From NCBI GenBank assembly GCA_963969365.1, contig OZ017756.1, forward strand, positions 682,001-746,000: a stretch of DNA of 64,000 bases, given 5' to 3'. Under the pieces are notes generated by a model that saw nothing but the letters and a program-made list of their open reading frames with translations, was not told where the DNA came from and searched no databases. This document shows positions 42,550 through 55,959 of this stretch, one piece after another. Numbering within the stretch: the first letter of the stretch is position 1; the number at the start of each line of letters is the position of its first letter. Origin of the DNA: Asterochloris sp. CNOR1 (Eukaryota > Chlorophyta > Trebouxiophyceae > Trebouxiales > Trebouxiaceae). Position numbers and translations under genes: made by a program.

Positions 42550-42987
42550 GACAACGATCTGCTCTCAAGCCAGGGTCAGGGCAGAGGCTGAGCCCATCTG
42601 ACTTCAACTGACTTTGCCAATGAGAACATGCATGAGCCGCACCGGCTGAGGCAGGCCTGGTTTCAGGCTCCTGTCCTGCTCACCTAATGCTGTAGAAGAT
42701 TGTTCACGTTTGACAAGGACTCACCCGCTTGCGGAACAGCAACCTATGAGCTTCAGCTCCTTCACTCAGCAGAAGCCCTTCGAGCCATCTAGACCTGTGA
42801 AGGTGTGACATGGGGCCTGACACTCTTGGAGTGTCAGCAGGCCTCTGCAGCATCATCTGCTGCCATGATTTGGCCGGCGTATGCACCATTGTGGGTGTTA
42901 GCCTTTCACTGACAAACACATTTCAAGGCTACACTCAGCGCTGGAGCCTGAACAGACCTTCGGAAGCCACACTTGCCACGTGCTGTC
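42550..42987. promoter_or_regulatory. Divergent promoter region, SET / DHHC genes
   Basis: Start codons face away from each other across 438 bp. No clear core element was found. Confidence 0.45.
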
Positions 42988-45578
42988 ATGGCAGCGGTCA
43001 GCTCTTGTGTGTTTCTGCAGGCTGTTCGTGTCAATAACACTGACGTGGATGATGCTATTGAAGCTCAGGCAGCCAATCTCAACGCCAGCAGGGCCCCGGC
43101 GGGTGCGGCGAAGTGGGACGAGGGCAAGTGGAAGGCAGGCATAGGAGCGCCCATTGGCCTGGCCTGCTACATTCTGCTGCTGGGTGCCGCAGGCTTTGGC
43201 TGTGGGTGAGAGCTGTCATCAGCTGCCATCAGCTTCTCAGGCCCAGGCGCCTCTGCTGCAGAATGTTCGGCAAGCATGAGCATACCCTCTGCAAGTCACC
43301 ACCATCTGCTGCCCACACATTGTATGCTGCTCAAGCTCTGACTACTCGCTTACCTCAGCAGCAGGCAGTTGTTGGCTGGCTGCAGGATTCGGACACTGCC
43401 ATGGTGGCTACAGCTGGTAGCAGCTGTGCTGCTGTGTGCCACTCTCGCGCTGCAGGCGCTGCTGATAGTTGTGGACCCAGGCGTCATACCTCCCAACACC
43501 GTAAAAGGTGGGCAGCCTCCCAATGGCTTGGTCTCAGCCTGATCTTGAGCTCTGCCCAGCCAGCAGTGGTTCGATGTCTTACCTGCACAGCGTGTAGCAG
43601 AGTTCTTCTGCTGCATCCCACTGCGGCACACACATGCCTGTGAGGAAGGTCACTCAGACTGAGGCGCCTGACAGTTGCTGCAGATCCCATTGTGGCAGAG
43701 CTTGAGGCTGACGATGTCAGCAAGGAGCAGCTGGACCGCATGGGCTATGAGAAGGTGCAGCTGCCATTGCAATGCAGGCCACTCAGCATGGCAGACCATT
43801 CAAACCCAGTCTGCAGGGTCAGTGGGCACAGGGCATGTCTCAAAGTCTTCCAGGCCTCTCAGCGGCGCAGGTTGTGTGGCCAACTAATGACAAGCACACC
43901 CTGTGGCCTGCATCCCGCGCTGCAGACAGCTTTCCCTGCTGGCAGACTTCACACAGCACTGTTGTCTGGTGGTGTGGCAAGGGCACGCATCTTGCACTTC
44001 CCTGTCCAGCACTCACAACCTGCACCAGACCGGCAGCAGCCGCTTGTGATCTGTCACCGCCTTGTCTCGCTGCTTGTTGCAGGACTATAGAAAACAGCTC
44101 CTGCGGAAGCGTGCTGATGGCAGCTATGAGCGTTATTGCAGCACCTGCTATATTTGGCGCCCACCCAGGGCGCACCACTGCAGTGTCTGTGGCTACTGCA
44201 TGGTGAGGCGCACAGCCTGAGGCACAACCTCCAGCTTTGTTTTGTTTGTCCTCGCTGCTGCATGCATCTTTGTGCAATGGTGTCCCAGTGTCTCAGGGCC
44301 CTGTGTTGGATGGTGTGTGCCTGGTTTGCTGCTGTGCGCTGGCATTCATCCCTGCGGCCGCTGTGGCTCCTGGCATGACAAGCTTGCCTGTGATGTCTAC
44401 TGCTGTTTACTAATGTCGAGCCTGAGGGTAAGGCGTCTTGCTATGTGCGGGCCCTCAGACACTGCTTCCTGCTGTGCAGAGCCGTTTTGACCACCACTGC
44501 GAGGTCGTGGGCACCTGCATCGCCGTCAACAACCACAGATTCTTCGTAGCTTTCCTCATCTGTGGGCAGCTTGCTTGCCTCTGTGTGGCAGCAGGTGAGG
44601 CTCACTGCTCACACTGCGTCGTGGAAACAAGTGGCTCAGCCTAGACTGTTTGTCGTCTTACGGTTGTGGCTCTTCTCTACCCTGCCATGCAGGAGCCTCC
44701 TGGAGACTCAATAGGATGGGCTTCCCACTGTGAGTTACGAGCTTTGATACTCAGCTGCATGTGCCATGCCAGCACAGCCCTGCTTCGCCAGGGGCAGACT
44801 GAACCATGTGTGCTGGTGCCACGTCCAGTGCTGCACTGCCTGACAAGCGGCAACCGCACCTGCCTGAGCCTGCGCTCTGAGGAAGCTGCAGGAAGCGCAG
44901 CTGGCTACAAGTAGAAACATACTTCCTGCTTTTGATCGACATCACCGTCGCATACACAGCCTTGATGCTGTTGTTTGGCTGTGGGCACCTCTGGGGTCTG
45001 ATTTGTGGTGAGCCAAGACCCACGTGGAAGTTTGCCTTTCTGCATGTAGGCATCATGCTGAGACTTGGATCCTGCTCATCGTGGACATCATCTTTGCCAG
45101 CAACACCCTGATGCTCGCACTCTTTGGCAATTGCCATTTTGGGTGGATCTGCATTGGTAAGGGTGACGCTGGCCAATGTTTGCCCAACACAGCAGCCCAC
45201 AGTCGTGCCTTCCCTGGCTTGCCCAACGGGTGACTGCATTGCCAGACCCTTTCCCTCCCTGTCTTGCAGATGTCACCACAAAAGACATGTTGACAGGTGA
45301 GGGTGTGGCAATTAATCTCTGGCGTGAGCTTGGTACTGCTTACCTATGCCTCTAGGAAGCCAACGAACTGTCTGCCTGCAGGATCTACCTTAGTGGAGGC
45401 ACCACCCTGCTGCAGTCGGCGGCGCTCACCGTTTGTGCTGCTGCAAAATTTGGGGATTGTGTGGTGCGCTCCACTCAGGTGGAAGTGGTCAGCAGGCAAG
45501 CCGGAGGCAATGCAACAGCCCCTGACTCCCATACACCAGCACAGTGATAACTACAGCATTGCAGAGGAGAATTGCTGA
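42988..45578 (+). CDS. DHHC-type protein S-acyltransferase (palmitoyltransferase)
   Basis: Exons: 42988-43205, 43386-43507, 43684-43754, 44083-44202, 44480-44594, 44693-44729, one of 44901-45007 or 45050-45156, 45270-45296, and 45382-45578; all join in phase. TM1 is [20 protein letters not shown]2 is [20 protein letters not shown], followed by the family's DPGVIP motif. The zinc-binding Cys-rich domain is [20 protein letters not shown], and the catalytic DHHC sits in [22 protein letters not shown]3 is [21 protein letters not shown]4 comes from either of the two alternative exons, followed by DVTTKDML (the TTxE-like motif) and [16 protein letters not shown]. The enzyme attaches palmitate to cysteines of membrane proteins, probably in Golgi, ER or plasma membrane. 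EVVGTC replaces the commoner PWVGNC after DHHC. The start assumes the ATG at 42988; an upstream exon is possible. Confidence 0.9.
44901..45007 (+). other. DHHC gene exon 7a (alternative TM4 exon)
   Basis: 107 nt, flanked by GCAG and GTGAGC. It enters after two codon bases (CT) and exits with one (G). It encodes [15 protein letters not shown] and [17 protein letters not shown], a hydrophobic helix. Confidence 0.85.
45050..45156 (+). other. DHHC gene exon 7b (alternative TM4 exon)
   Basis: 107 nt, flanked by GTAG and GTAAGG, with the same entry and exit phase as exon 7a. It encodes [15 protein letters not shown] and [18 protein letters not shown]. It is clearly related to 7a and begins only 42 nt after it. 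Confidence 0.85.
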
Positions 45579-45890: not shown

Positions 45891-48314
45891 TCACCCTGTC
45901 GGCAATGCCTGCCTCTGGCTGAGGTGAGTTCGCTGCTCCTGGGCCAGCCTGTTGATACCATGCTGCTCTGCTAGACTGGGCTGGATGAAACGCTCTGGTG
46001 AAAAGGGATCCAAGTCTAGGCATGTGCACCTGCCAGTGGCAATGAGCTCTGCCAGGGCCTTTCCAGTTGCAGGGCCCTGAGCGATGCCCCAGCAAGAGTG
46101 TCCTGCGCACAGGAAGTTACACGGTCAAAGACATGTCACAGGAACACTGCTGTAGAGCCTGGATGTGTCATGAAGCTTGGCTACAGCAGCTGTCAGGAAG
46201 TAGCAGGGACGGGGCAGCACCTGTTGCAATGAAGGCACCCTCTGTGCCTGGCAGTGCTCCAAGCACGGGGGTGCCGTCAGGGGAGAGGGGCCTCAAGCAC
46301 GCCTGTTGCTCCAGCAATGTTGCCTGAGCCAGGGCAGAGCCAACTGTCCATTGCACCTCCTGCAATGAGGCACATGACTCAGCGCCTACACCCTGGATGA
46401 AGGTTTTAAGAACGGCAACAATTGTTTCAAGAATTGATCAGTCTCAGTGCATGCAAGACAATGTGTGCACATTGCAGAGCCCCTTGCCTTGAGATTGTCC
46501 GCTGCAGAGGGCAGCATGCTGACATGTTTTGCATGGTCAGGCACAGAGACCATGGCATTGCCGCCGCCTAGCCACAAAGTGCCGTCAGGTCTGGGGTAAG
46601 CCTCACTCTCAAAGCTGACACCTGCAGAGATAGCTGAAATGCTGGGCAAGGGCATTTGCTGGCTGTTTTATCAAGAAGGCAGCTGCTAGCAGTGTAGACT
46701 ACCACAACAGGCCAAAGCATGGCAAGTGTCTTTTTTCCCCGAAGGCCTCATCATAAAACCCAGCAGGGGCAGGCCTTCCCCTGTCTAGGAAGCGCCCTCT
46801 GCTCTTGAGCTTGCTGATGTACACAGCATGAAGCAATTTGAGACCACAGGGTGAGGCTGACCTGCCTTTGAGCGCCAGGAGATGTACAGCGCCTCAGCGG
46901 GCAACGGCACAGGGGCCTGAAGCACCAGGCTGTGCCCAATCTGGCTGTGCACCTCTGGCACAGCTGGCAGCCACTCAGCAGCGTGCAGGGTCCATGGGCC
47001 CAAGGCCAGCACAACTGCATCAGCTTCCACCACTCTGCCATCCACCTGTACTCCTGTGACCCTCTGCTCGTAAGCACCATTGGCTTGCATGGCAACGCTG
47101 TCAGATGGAGTGGCCTCTGCGCTCCCTGCTGCTGCCTGCTGAGTCTGGCTGTCCCATGCTGCCAGGCCTGGGCGGTCTAGGCTTACAGCTTCTGCCCTCT
47201 GTGTGCAGATGCCTTGGGCCTGGCCAATGATAAGCTCAGCGCCATATCTCTGCGCTGCCTCGAGCAGAGCATGTGTGAGTTTGCCAGGATGGACTTGGGC
47301 TGTGCTGTCCTCGTTGCTCAGTGACTGCAGGTGGCCTGTTGTCAGTGCAGATGCGTTGGTATTGAGCATTGTTGGTGCGAAGGGGCTAACACAATGAGGC
47401 CTTGAAGCATATGTGGGTGCAATGCAATGACACGCTTGCATGACAACAGCAGGCGACAGCCAGCTTGCACAGCTGCACCATCATGCAGACAGGTGCCACT
47501 GGAGAGGCTGAGCAGCACAGGGTGCCAGGCAGACACGAGCAACACTGTGGCCAGGTACAGCAGATGGCTTGACCTGAGGGCACAAGAGCAAGGCAACCAG
47601 CTAGGGCTTCTATTCGGGCAGGACAATGACCCAAAGACAAGGAACAAACAGCGTCAGACTTGACCTGAGCACCTGTGCCCCTGCCACATTGCCATCCAGC
47701 CAAGCTGGGGCCCTGCCTCTGCCCCGCAGATTGCCCGCAGAGGATGCTTTCAGGCCAGTGCTGCGCATCGGACGATACCCGATTGCCTCTGCACCAAACT
47801 CATCCGCCAGCTGCCGGTGCAGGTCAAAGCTGGCCTGCATGAGCTCCTCTGAGGGCCCGCCATCACACCAGTCCCTGGCCAGGAATCCACCAGCCTTGCC
47901 TGCAGTAACGGGCAGCAGGTCAGCAGAAGTTCCAATTAGGCATGCATTGGCAGATGGGCCCACACCTGATGCCGCCCCTGCCACCTTGTGCTGCTCCACC
48001 AGAGTGGTCTTGATGCCATGCATCTTGGCAAGGAAGAAGGCTGTGCATGTGCCAATTATGCCTGCCCCGCATATGACAACATGCTGTGGTCTCTGATGTA
48101 CTGACATCCTCTTTGCTTCTGCAGTAGGCATGCTGGCTCTGCAGACTGGGCCAACGGCCTTGACAAGCATGCTCAGCTGAGGATCAGACACAGCACAGGA
48201 ATATCTGTTTGCATCCAGAATCCTTGTCGAAAGACAGGTTGTTGTCAGAACATATATGAAACGCCGTGCGATACATGCCTGTGTCCCATGAGGATGTTTC
48301 TCATCATCAGCCAT
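45891..48314 (-). CDS. FAD-dependent oxidoreductase, DAO family (TDA3 / plant At5g48440-like)
   Basis: The first exon begins at ATG 48314, with later in-frame ATGs at 48131 and 48107. The Rossmann FAD-binding motif is HVVICGAGIIGTCTAFFLAK, followed by TTLVEQHKVAGAASG, then GKAGGFLARDWCDG. A second exon (about 47330-46870) gives STAQVHPGKLTHALLEAAQR and DAVVLALGPWTLHAAEWLP. Further exons give FESEAYPRPDGTLWLGGG (to 46488), PLSPDGTPVLGALPG and GHSCWGIAQGPATGKALAEL, ending in TGA at 45891. The layout is that of DAO-type oxidases (Pfam DAO), which oxidise amines or amino acids with FAD. The exact substrate is unknown. The about 60-residue extension before the FAD motif could be an organelle targeting peptide. 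One intron appears to start with GC. Confidence 0.87.
46486..46487 (-). other. Probable GC splice donor in FAD oxidoreductase gene
   Basis: The exon ends ADNLK (AAG) and is followed by GCAAGG. The next exon (EVQWTVGSALAQATLLEQQ) follows TTGCAG in phase 0. A GT donor a few codons earlier would also keep phase, so this is less certain than the TPP2 case. Confidence 0.5.
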
Positions 48315-53436: not shown

Positions 53437-55959
53437 TCAGGTCTTTGCCTCAAGCTCTGGCATGTCATCGTCATCTGAGTCATCTGCAGGCAGCCAGATA
53501 AAAAATCTTCAGCAGCGATGGCCCTAACCAGTTGGAAGTAAAGGTCCGCAACACATCAACAGGCAGGCTTCTAATTGGCTTGGCTTGAGCTAGCTCCCCA
53601 AGGAGGAAGGCAGGCAGGGCAGGGGCTTGGCACAACACTCAGAGAAAGGCAAGAACAGCGATCAGCACCGTCTTCAAGCAGAGAAGTCTCGAAATGCTGT
53701 CTGGAAGGTCCAAGGGAGCCAGCAATACTGTCTTATCTCTATACATAGCCAGCAGGTCTTCGTTCGTGCAGAAGCAGCGATGCACTCACCAGCACCGCCT
53801 CTCAGGTTTGGATCGCCATTGCACCACACCATCGAGCAAGACAGAGCACAAAGGTTGTCTTCCAGGCAAAGGCACCACAGTGCACCCCAGTCTCATACAG
53901 ATGTAGCCCCGCAACAGTTGCATCAAGGCAGCCGTGCACTCACCAGCACCCTCTCCCTCATCCCCAAGGTCCTCAAAGTTCATGCCGCCGGGCATGCCGC
54001 CAGCCCCGCCAAAGTTGGGCATACCGCCTGCGCCCCCTCCAAAGTTGGGCATGCCAGGCATGCCGCCTGCTGCAAACCAAAGCTGGTTCAATGAGGAGAG
54101 GCGGGGCAGAGCTTGCAGTGAGGAGCACTGCAGCTGCAGAAGGAGCAGCTGATGAAACCTGCACTGATGCACAGCTGAGTTTCAGCTCACCACCGCCAAA
54201 GTTGGGCATTCCTGACATCCCCCCTGCGCCTGCAGCATTTTGCCTGACTTGGCAATGGACTCTGCTCCAGCAATGCAGGTGGCTACACCCCTTTGCGTTC
54301 CCTCGCTGGACAGCACAGGGAGAGCTGCACTGACGCAATGCATGCAGCAGCACACAGAGCTGCACCGATGCAATGCAGGTGGCAGAGCAGCCCCCTGCTG
54401 GGCAGCACAGTGATTGCAGCACGGAAGCCCAGGAGTATGCAGCTCACCACCACCAAAGTCAGGCATCCCCGGCATCCCCCCTTTCCCTGCAGCGTGGGGC
54501 TACACTTGCACTTGACTGGACCCATTGATGCAACTGCTTGCAAGAAATGGCACCCTCCCTTGTTCAGCCACTCGCTGCTCGTTGCATGCCAGGACCTGGC
54601 ATCTGCTGCTGACCTAAGGCCTCATGCTGCAATGTCAAGCTCACACGATGCCAGTAGCACAGCCGAAAGACAACATGCTATGCTGCCAGCTCATTGGTGT
54701 TTATATTATTCCACATGCCCATGCCCCGCCAGATGAGTGAGCGAGCAAAGCATCAGCACTCAGTATTGTCACTCACCACCGCCAAACTGTTGCAGGTTCT
54801 GCATATCTGACATGTCAAAGTTGTCTGGCTTCTCATCCTCCTGCAGGCAGGTAGGGCACTCAGGAGCTGGCATGCTAAACAAATAGATGAACAGGATTGA
54901 CATCTGCAGCATGCCGAGCAGTAGGCAGGAAAGGCTTGCTGCAAAGCAGCTCATCCTGTTCACGCAGGTTGCAGCCCGCTCGTAAGATTAGTGCAACGAC
55001 TTCAGCATGCACTACAGAGCAGGGCAGGCAGCCCATGCTGGCTGGGGTGACGTGCCACAACGCCGAGTTCTGGTCGCATGCAGGAGCAGCCTGGCCCAGC
55101 TGAAAATGCATCCATGTCTCTGTGGTGTCAGCAGCACATCAGAGTCCCACTGGTCATCAGCAGGCAGCAGCAGGGACGCACCTCGTCCTCATCAACCCAC
55201 TTGCTCCAGTCCACCTGCAGCAGATTGCCATTGAGCAGGAGTCAAGGGACCAGCAGCAGCAAAGACGTACAGCCCCCTCATGAAGGCGCAGTTCAGCTCC
55301 CGACGACAGCAGATGCAGTCAACAGGTCAGCGCACAGCAAGCACGGGTCCCATGAAACCATCAGCAGCAATGACAGCAAGACCAGGCTTCTCATGACAGA
55401 TGCACGTCTGGCAAGGTGTTCATTGCAGAGGCAGTCATGAAACTGGCCCCACCTTGATGTTCCGAGGGAGCTTGCCCGACTCCTTCAGCAGCCGCGGCCA
55501 GTGCTCATCTGCAGCGATGGTAAGCAGGCATCAAGATGCAGAGACGGTTCTGTACGTCAATGCCATACCTCAAAAGGCCCCATGTGAGAGCACATGAGAG
55601 AGGCCTTTGCTAGAAAGCAGTTGGACATGTGCATGAAGCCTCTGCCCCTGCGTATACTGACCTGATTTCTCTTGCTTCTGGACGACCAGCACGATGCCTC
55701 TGCCAGTCACTCTGACTTTGCTTTCCTCCACATTGATGGGGCCATACAGGTCCAGCTTCAATGCATAGTTGTGTGCATCGCTGCCAGTGGCATGGCTCTG
55801 CCCCTTGCCTTTGAAGCTTAGGTGCCCATGCTTGCCCTCTGCATCATTGCTCAGCCTGATCTCAGGCTTGGAGTCAGCCGTGTCCTGCAGGTCTATGGTC
55901 AGGTACACTCGATCTGAACGCTGAGCCCACATCACATTGGGCAGGAGGGTCTTGGACAT
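53437..55959 (-). CDS. p23-like Hsp90 co-chaperone (CS domain)
   Basis: Eight exons: 55959-55662, about 55511-55452, 55219-55184, 54842-54778, 54486-54448, 54229-54191, 54069-53944, and the last, ending at 53437. The CS domain runs from MSKTLLPNVMWAQRSDRVYL through INVEESKVRVTGRGIVLVVQ. Then come the p23 signature segments EHWPRLLKESGKLP and VDWSKWVDEDE. The tail has NFDMSDMQNLQQFGGG, then repeated G-G-M-P-G-M-P-N-F-G-G, then NFEDLGDEGEGA and the acidic end DSDDDDMPELEAKT-TGA. It binds ATP-bound Hsp90 in cytosol or nucleus and slows its ATPase, as known for the family. The WPRLLK and VDWSKWVDEDE motifs match plant p23 proteins closely. It lies downstream of TPP2 on the same strand. Confidence 0.95.
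53944..54486 (-). repeat. Serially duplicated Gly-Met exons in p23
   Basis: Exons 54486-54448 and 54229-54191 are each exactly 39 nt, with the same phase at both ends, and encode GKGGMPGMPDFGG and GAGGMSGMPNFGG. The next exon (54069-53944) begins with the same 13-residue unit. Either 39-nt exon could be skipped without a frame change. Confidence 0.8.

What the first reader, a model, noticed from the sequence alone, without database searches (positions are those of the whole stretch)
44901..45156. Mutually exclusive exons encoding two versions of one membrane helix in a DHHC palmitoyltransferase
Exons 7a and 7b are each exactly 107 nt, with identical entry and exit phases, and encode related helices ([11 protein letters not shown]... 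and [11 protein letters not shown]...). 107 is not a multiple of 3, so including both breaks the frame. Their 42-nt spacing also looks too short for an intron. Either alone joins cleanly to the TM3 exon and to DVTTKDML. This is the classic signature of steric mutually exclusive splicing, rarely reported in green algae, and it would swap TM4 beside the active site.
Basis: partly seen in the sequence, partly recalled or inferred. Interest (0 to 1): 0.85.

Follow-up and report, generated by a model that had tools for sequence, protein, structure and literature searches.

The report
Two alternative exons for one helix
A gene of a photosynthetic alga for an enzyme that attaches fatty acids to proteins carries two back-to-back versions of the exon for its fourth membrane helix, spaced so that only one can sensibly be used per message, so the cell could make two versions of the enzyme from one gene.

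Summary
The exon pair is real. The gene encodes a four-helix DHHC palmitoyltransferase, and two adjacent homologous exons each encode TM4 plus the stretch leading to a TTxE-like motif. Either exon alone keeps the frame to the same stop. Both together hit a stop in 7b; neither shifts the C-terminus.

One detail of the finding is probably wrong. The 7a acceptor at 44901 scores below all 332 acceptors predicted in this genome sample, while CTGCAG|G at 44892 scores in the normal range. Exon 7a is most likely 116 nt, not 107; length modulo 3 is unchanged.

Both exons look selected as protein. Their similarity is reached by 0 of 20,000 shuffles. Synonymous sites differ at 66-71%, nonsynonymous at 31-37%. 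Both keep a His nine residues before TT, as several relatives do.

The 42-nt spacer is shorter than all 214 stricter predicted introns (median 277) and puts every A within 41 nt of the 7a donor.

Steric mutually exclusive splicing is the best explanation (about 0.8). No transcript or relative could be examined. Volvox cyn23 is a verified green-alga precedent, so this is a new member of a known kind.

The parts
42746..42802 (+). exon 1 with ATG (MSFSSFTQQKPFEPSRPVK); inferred
   Evidence: called by the ab initio model with these boundaries; joins in phase 0 to the next exon
43021..43205 (+). exon with TM1
   Evidence: read by hand and called by the model with the same boundaries; hydrophobic segment at residues 64-82
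43386..43507 (+). exon with TM2 and the DPG motif
   Evidence: DPG named as a family motif in PMC9006032 (passage)
43684..43754 (+). linker exon
44083..44202 (+). exon with the cysteine-rich domain
   Evidence: read by hand; PF01529 match starts in it at residue 161; skipped by the ab initio model
44480..44594 (+). exon with the DHHC active-site motif and TM3
   Evidence: PF01529 E 1.7e-22 (isoform A) and 8.9e-24 (isoform B)
44693..44729 (+). exon for the TM3-TM4 loop; common 5' partner of both alternative exons
   Evidence: acceptor 67th and donor 16th percentile; the model starts an exon here but reads on to a stop at 44733
44892..45007 (+). alternative TM4 exon 7a, preferred form of 116 nt; a 107-nt form starting at 44901 is possible but its acceptor is very poor
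   Evidence: acceptor 5.55 at 44892 against -0.61 at 44901; donor 5.63
45008..45049 (+). 42-nt spacer between the alternative exons; every A lies at most 41 nt from the 7a donor
   Evidence: intron lengths
45050..45156 (+). alternative TM4 exon 7b, 107 nt
   Evidence: acceptor 6.11, donor 3.55; homologous to 7a
45270..45296 (+). exon 8, DVTTKDMLT, the TTxE-like motif; common 3' partner
45382..45578 (+). last exon, cytosolic C-terminus and stop; inferred
   Evidence: CTGCAG acceptor at the 81st percentile; reading frame

Best explanation
An ancestral TM4 exon of a DHHC palmitoyltransferase was duplicated in tandem, and the two copies diverged under selection to encode two versions of the same helix. 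Shown from sequence: homology, matching phase, frame outcomes, spacer length and constraint. Inferred: the spliceosome cannot join 7a to 7b because the 42-nt spacer leaves no room between the 7a donor and any branch point for 7b, so each transcript joins the TM3-side exon to either 7a or 7b and then to exon 8. A transcript that includes both meets a stop in 7b, 72 nt upstream of the last junction, and would probably be degraded. The result is two enzymes of the same topology that differ in the TM3-TM4 loop and on part of TM4, while the active site, the TTxE-like motif and the C-terminus are shared. The most likely purpose is to tune substrate, partner, membrane or acyl-CoA preference; this last step is conjecture.
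For: Frame and splice logic. Homology: 0 of 20,000 shuffles reach the observed score. pS 0.71 against pN 0.31, bootstrap fraction with pN >= pS 0.0026 of 5,000; under the alternative alignment pS 0.66 against pN 0.37, fraction 0.0175 of 2,000. If one exon had been neutral for half of the divergence, staying open with this much identity has P 0.0000 or 0.0043, by alignment. Splice sites of both exons lie in the range of predicted sites, provided 7a starts at 44892. Spacer: 0 of 214 stricter introns are 42 nt or less; every A in the spacer is at most 41 nt from the 7a donor, below the roughly 50-nt 5'ss-branch-site distance described for human splicing (PMC6692369, passages). PF01529 matches both isoforms through TM4 to profile position 129 or 130 of 133, and both show TM4 in a hydropathy scan. 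His nine residues before the first T of TT in both exons, as in DHHC20 and ZDHHC9, ERF2 and paralogs L009, L011 and L015.
Against: No transcript data, so use of either exon is not shown. No relative with the pair: viral contigs gave no pattern match and none of 15 pattern matches in genome contigs encoded a relative, but those collections are viral and prokaryotic. The ab initio model did not call 7a, 7b or the last two exons. Codon content is weak: 7a (107 nt) scores -2.1, which 16% of 966 open noncoding windows reach; 7b scores 2.3, which 1.1% reach; the certain CRD exon scores -5.5, so the measure is poor. Five of all 332 predicted introns are 42 nt or less; all five fail the stricter thresholds, some narrowly. 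Introns of about 50 nt may exist here and the steric limit of this organism is unknown. The family His is not universal: paralog L008 has Gln there and L014 has no TT pair at that place. No RNA-structure signal (z 0.08). Exon death within roughly the last fifth to third of the divergence cannot be excluded. The intron set comes from a model seeded with this gene's own other splice sites.
Confidence: 0.8

Rival explanations
1. One exon is a recently dead copy: the gene uses the other constitutively and the relic has not had time to decay.
For: No transcripts were seen. In the neutral simulations a copy dead for 10% or 20% of the divergence would still be open and this similar with P 0.55 and 0.05 or 0.68 and 0.46. 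7a has a poorer codon score.
Against: Both copies keep splice sites in the normal range, an open frame, in-frame indels only, the His at the family distance before TT, and reduced nonsynonymous change. Death for half or more of the divergence has P at most 0.0043.
Confidence: 0.1
2. The two exons are alternative but not strictly exclusive: cassette use, with double-inclusion or double-skip messages made on purpose to lower expression or make a truncated protein.
For: Double inclusion gives a stop 72 nt before the last junction, a typical decay trigger in plants and animals (recalled); the double skip stays open into the last exon with a 299-residue product. In human MXE work, exon-joining reads were found for 18 clusters in a set of 20 genes with incompatible frames (PMC5740500, passage).
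Against: The 42-nt spacer is below every stricter intron of the genome sample (0 of 214), so 7a-to-7b joining should be rare; the double skip loses TM4 and the TTxE-like motif.
Confidence: 0.08
3. Chance: a second open stretch with splice-like ends that merely resembles a hydrophobic helix.
For: Hydrophobic helices resemble each other by composition; 19 place bins in 276,624 bases reach z >= 6 in a scan of neighbouring exon-like pairs, and three listed rows outrank 7a/7b.
Against: 0 of 20,000 composition-preserving shuffles reach the similarity; 65 of 101 aligned bases are identical; the three rows above it lie at two places that look like low-complexity repeats.
Confidence: 0.02

Closest known systems
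Volvox carteri cyn23 mutually exclusive exons 4 and 5 (PMC4378016, section 10 read)
   Same: Green-alga gene with two neighbouring mutually exclusive exons of like length (both 106 nt there, not divisible by 3) whose products are variants of one stretch.
   Different: A cyclophilin-related protein, not a membrane enzyme; verified by RT-PCR, whereas the pair here has no transcript evidence; the products differ at 13 residues, against 15 of 32 or 19 of 33 aligned residues here.
OGDH exons 4a/4b of vertebrates (PMC7969005, passages)
   Same: Exons from an ancient duplication, kept exclusive because branch points lie 25-41 nt downstream of the upstream exon's 5' splice site in human.
   Different: There the limit comes from distant branch points within the intervening intron; here the whole spacer is 42 nt, so any branch point inside it is too near.
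Human MXE clusters with potential steric interference (PMC5740500, passages)
   Same: Sequence similarity, same reading frame and similar length define candidates; 57 clusters (9%) have a donor-to-branch-point distance under 50.
   Different: Validated with RNA-seq; human genes.
Other DHHC genes of the same genome (L008, L009, L011, L015)
   Same: DHHC-family loci with a hydrophobic stretch followed by a TTxE-like motif.
   Different: In these four the TTxE-like motif and all or much of TM4 lie in one open stretch. A second TM4 exon near them was not looked for with a sensitive method: the search did not even find their single TM4.

Membership tests
DHHC palmitoyltransferase (PF01529) | match to the DHHC domain above the curated cut-off | tested here: met
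   80.3 and 84.5 bits against 28.7
DHHC palmitoyltransferase (PF01529) | DHHC motif, DPG near TM2, TTxE after TM4, four TM helices | tested here: met
   DHHC and DPG present, four hydrophobic regions; the last motif reads TTKD, a conservative departure from TTxE
DHHC palmitoyltransferase (PF01529) | acyltransferase activity | not testable with these tools
   needs an enzyme assay
tandem homologous mutually exclusive exons | neighbouring exons with sequence similarity, the same reading frame and similar length | tested here: met
   116 (or 107) and 107 nt; criteria as in PMC5740500 (passages)
tandem homologous mutually exclusive exons | joint inclusion or joint skipping breaks the frame | tested here: met
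tandem homologous mutually exclusive exons | transcripts containing one or the other exon, not both | not testable with these tools
   no RNA data held
sterically enforced mutually exclusive splicing | 5' splice site of the upstream exon too near the branch point of the downstream exon (about 50 nt in human) | tested here: inconclusive
   every A of the 42-nt spacer is at most 41 nt from the donor, which meets the human limit; but the branch point was not mapped and the limit of this organism is unknown
RNA-structure (docking/selector) mutually exclusive splicing | stable or competing intronic structures | tested here: not met
   fold of 44730-45269 has z 0.08; one inverted pair of 15 nt at 80%; no relatives to test covariation

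The most novel reading that the evidence does not exclude
A sterically enforced splice switch in an alga exchanges one face of TM4 of a palmitoyltransferase while holding the cavity-side face, the catalytic motif and the C-terminus constant, giving a two-state enzyme that differs in membrane environment, partner or substrate choice.
Probability: 0.3. Interest if true: 0.68.

Novelty: new member of a known kind. Interest (0 to 1): 0.5.

Why it matters
Homologous mutually exclusive exons are mostly described in animals (recalled). A clear case in an alga would stand beside Volvox cyn23, and it is the only one in a palmitoyltransferase that my two searches on that point turned up (four papers listed in all). 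Because the acyl pocket of DHHC enzymes is built from all four helices (PMC9006032, passage), a natural TM4 swap would be a ready-made experiment on how TM4 shapes specificity or location. The very short spacer is also a simple test of the minimum intron geometry of an algal spliceosome.

Tried and rejected
Acceptor at 44901 for 7a: rejected in favour of 44892 on matrix score.

Branch-point motif: CTNAY shows a mild excess 20-29 nt before the 3' splice site in 200 introns, but no 5-mer stood out as a clear branch signal, so no branch point is assigned. A CTGAT near the end of exon 7a is only a possibility.

The third is used; I chose it after seeing the other two. Of its 332 introns 8 are under 60 nt (22, 26, 32, 33, 38, 49, 51, 55); 3 of the 214 stricter ones are, and the 51-nt one is a misprediction, since the ORF reads through it and carries a CS domain.

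RNA-structure mechanism: no signal. Searches for relatives in viral and prokaryote collections found none. A first scan for other tandem exon pairs gave mostly coiled-coil and low-complexity pairs (26 rows printed of 3,366 raw hits); a stricter scan ranks 7a/7b fourth by z (16 rows listed, 19 place bins with z >= 6). Helical periodicity of conserved positions is suggestive only (permutation p 0.037 at 100 degrees; the largest of the angles tried was 90). A search of seven paralog loci for 7a/7b-like helices gave no hit and is too insensitive to count as absence.

Papers: PMC12488188, listed for DHHC and mutually exclusive, uses the phrase in another sense in the passages seen. PMC5322580 only names the class.

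Full report
WHERE IT IS. The window is bases 682001-746000 of contig C11 in a 56.4-Mb, 21-contig genome. The genome holds many chlorophyll-binding-protein domains (31 exon-level matches listed), so it is a photosynthetic eukaryote.

THE GENE. On the + strand between 42746 and 45578 lies a DHHC palmitoyltransferase gene. Its proposed exons are 42746-42802, 43021-43205, 43386-43507, 43684-43754, 44083-44202, 44480-44594, 44693-44729, then 7a or 7b, 45270-45296 and 45382-45578. Both spliced isoforms match PF01529 (80.3 and 84.5 bits, cut-off 28.7), with the match running through TM4 to profile position 129 or 130 of 133. The solved structures matched by sequence (8 distinct sequences) include ZDHHC9, DHHC20, ERF2 and ZDHHC5. 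A hydropathy scan shows four membrane regions, the fourth encoded by 7a or 7b. The genome holds several other DHHC genes (23 exon-level matches). The 7a and 7b peptides each list only themselves, but the search is insensitive, since 7a did not list 7b.

THE OBSERVATION. The stretches 44901-45007 and 45050-45156 are each 107 nt and separated by 42 nt. Either alone gives an open frame to the same stop; both or neither shifts the frame. With both, the stop lies in 7b, 72 nt before the last exon junction. With neither, a 299-residue product with a different C-terminus ends in the last exon. Retention of the 42-nt spacer also ends in 7b.

A CORRECTION. I trained an ab initio splice model on 276,624 bases of this genome: the window, twenty 10-kb pieces and four DHHC loci. 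It was seeded with this gene's sites other than those of 7a and 7b; the splice matrices were then re-estimated with this whole gene left out. In 332 introns the acceptor is strongly CTGCAG (T at -5 in 313, G at -4 in 315, C at -3 in 314). Exon 7a is therefore most likely 44892-45007 (116 nt), adding KRS before WLQVET. Phase is unchanged. The other sites are ordinary: 7a donor 51st percentile, 7b acceptor 21st, 7b donor 18th. The model itself called exons 1 to 4, the DHHC exon and the start of the TM3-side exon at the boundaries read by hand, but it skipped the CRD exon and ended the gene at 44733. It therefore gives no independent call of 7a, 7b or the last two exons.

HOMOLOGY AND CONSTRAINT. 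The peptides [35 protein letters not shown] and [35 protein letters not shown], each with its shared split-codon ends, have a local score of 68; 0 of 20,000 shuffles reach it (maximum 57). At the DNA level 65 of 101 aligned bases are identical. In the gapped codon alignment (32 codons, 17 identical residues) pS is 0.71 and pN 0.31, and a fraction 0.0026 of 5,000 bootstraps has pN >= pS. In an alignment ungapped at the right end (33 codons, 14 identical) pS is 0.66, pN 0.37 and the fraction 0.0175 of 2,000. Simulated neutral decay of one copy for half of the divergence leaves it open with the observed identity with P 0.0000 or 0.0043; for 30%, 0.0003 or 0.17; for 20%, 0.05 or 0.46. So a long-dead copy is excluded and a recently dead one is not. 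Codon content does not help: 7a -2.1 (16% of 966 open noncoding windows reach this), 7b 2.3 (1.1%), and the certain CRD exon -5.5.

FAMILY FEATURES KEPT BY BOTH. Both exons place a His nine residues before the first Thr of the TT pair. The same spacing is seen in DHHC20 and ZDHHC9, ERF2 and paralogs L009, L011 and L015. Of seven paralog loci looked at, L008 has Gln there, L014 has no TT pair at that place, and in L012 and L016 no TTxE-like match was found. In L008, L009, L011 and L015 the TTxE-like motif and all or much of TM4 lie in one open stretch, so the separate TM4 exon of this gene differs from those.

SPACER. Other introns of this gene are 85-328 nt, by the coordinates above. In the genome sample 0 of 214 stricter introns are 42 nt or less, and 3 are under 60, of which the 51-nt one is a misprediction inside a CS-domain gene. 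In the full set of 332, five are 42 nt or less; each fails at least one stricter threshold, some narrowly. Adenines in the spacer lie at positions 4 to 41. Human splicing needs about 50 nt between 5' splice site and branch site (PMC6692369, passages). A steric block is therefore likely, with the caution that the limit in this organism is unknown. RNA folding of 44730-45269 is no better than shuffles (z 0.08).

WHAT IS SWITCHED. In the aligned helix core, identical residues (ET, LL, DI, A) recur about every four positions; the helical moment at 100 degrees has permutation p 0.037. By the alignment to DHHC20, numbered from its catalytic Cys156, Leu213 falls on profile position 194, a Leu that both versions keep. 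Leu213 is one of four residues closing the tip of the acyl cavity (PMC9006032, passages). The changed residues (Y/W, F/I, L/I, I/V, T/I, V/F, Y/S, T/N) lie mainly at the other positions. This suggests, weakly, that the swap changes a lipid- or partner-facing side, or the loop, more than the cavity tip. It was not tested with structures.

HOW UNUSUAL IN THE GENOME SAMPLE. Among 33,471 neighbouring exon-like pairs of equal phase, 19 place bins reach z >= 6; 7a/7b has z 9.6, fourth in the list. The three rows above it come from two places that look low-complexity, and several others look like repeated domains; only the ankyrin ones were checked.

AGAINST THE LITERATURE. Volvox cyn23 is an RT-PCR-verified mutually exclusive pair of 106-nt exons in a green alga (PMC4378016, section 10). 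A Haematococcus long-read transcriptome reports none (PMC6330051, passage). OGDH 4a/4b is a steric case by branch-point position (PMC7969005, passages). Human MXE work uses the same candidate criteria and finds 57 clusters with potential steric interference (PMC5740500, passages). Two searches for such exons in DHHC enzymes listed two papers each. None concerns such exons by title and start of abstract; passages of one were seen. This is not proof of absence.

VERDICT. A genuine, constrained tandem pair of TM4 exons, most likely spliced mutually exclusively by a steric block. The boundary of 7a is corrected, the function is inferred, and transcripts are needed.

Noticed in passing
window 44886-44901: Two in-frame candidate acceptors for exon 7a 9 nt apart (44892 good, 44901 very weak); use of both would add or drop three residues in the TM3-TM4 loop.
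   Followed up: partly
genome sample (window, L009, L012, L015, L016, L018-L037): Predicted acceptors follow an extended CTGCAG|G consensus (T at -5 in 313, G at -4 in 315 and C at -3 in 314 of 332), which looks tighter than the usual YAG; the model was seeded with such sites, so part of this may be bias. GC donors are 22 of 332.
   Followed up: partly
window 55570-55959, - strand: Open frame with a CS domain (PF04969), p23-like by recalled sequence; a predicted 51-nt intron inside it is a false call.
   Followed up: yes
window 46785-47441, - strand: Part of a FAD-dependent oxidoreductase (PF01266), the convergent downstream neighbour of the DHHC gene.
   Followed up: partly
L037 2220-3141 and L008: Ankyrin repeats lie upstream of another DHHC domain on C3, suggesting an ankyrin-DHHC enzyme.
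   Followed up: partly
L028 7554-7795 (- strand), L036 1319-1542 (+ strand): Neighbouring similar exon-like segments of 80-92 nt in sequence that looks low-complexity, gaps 70 and 52 nt; likely repeats, but not examined as possible tandem exons.
   Followed up: no
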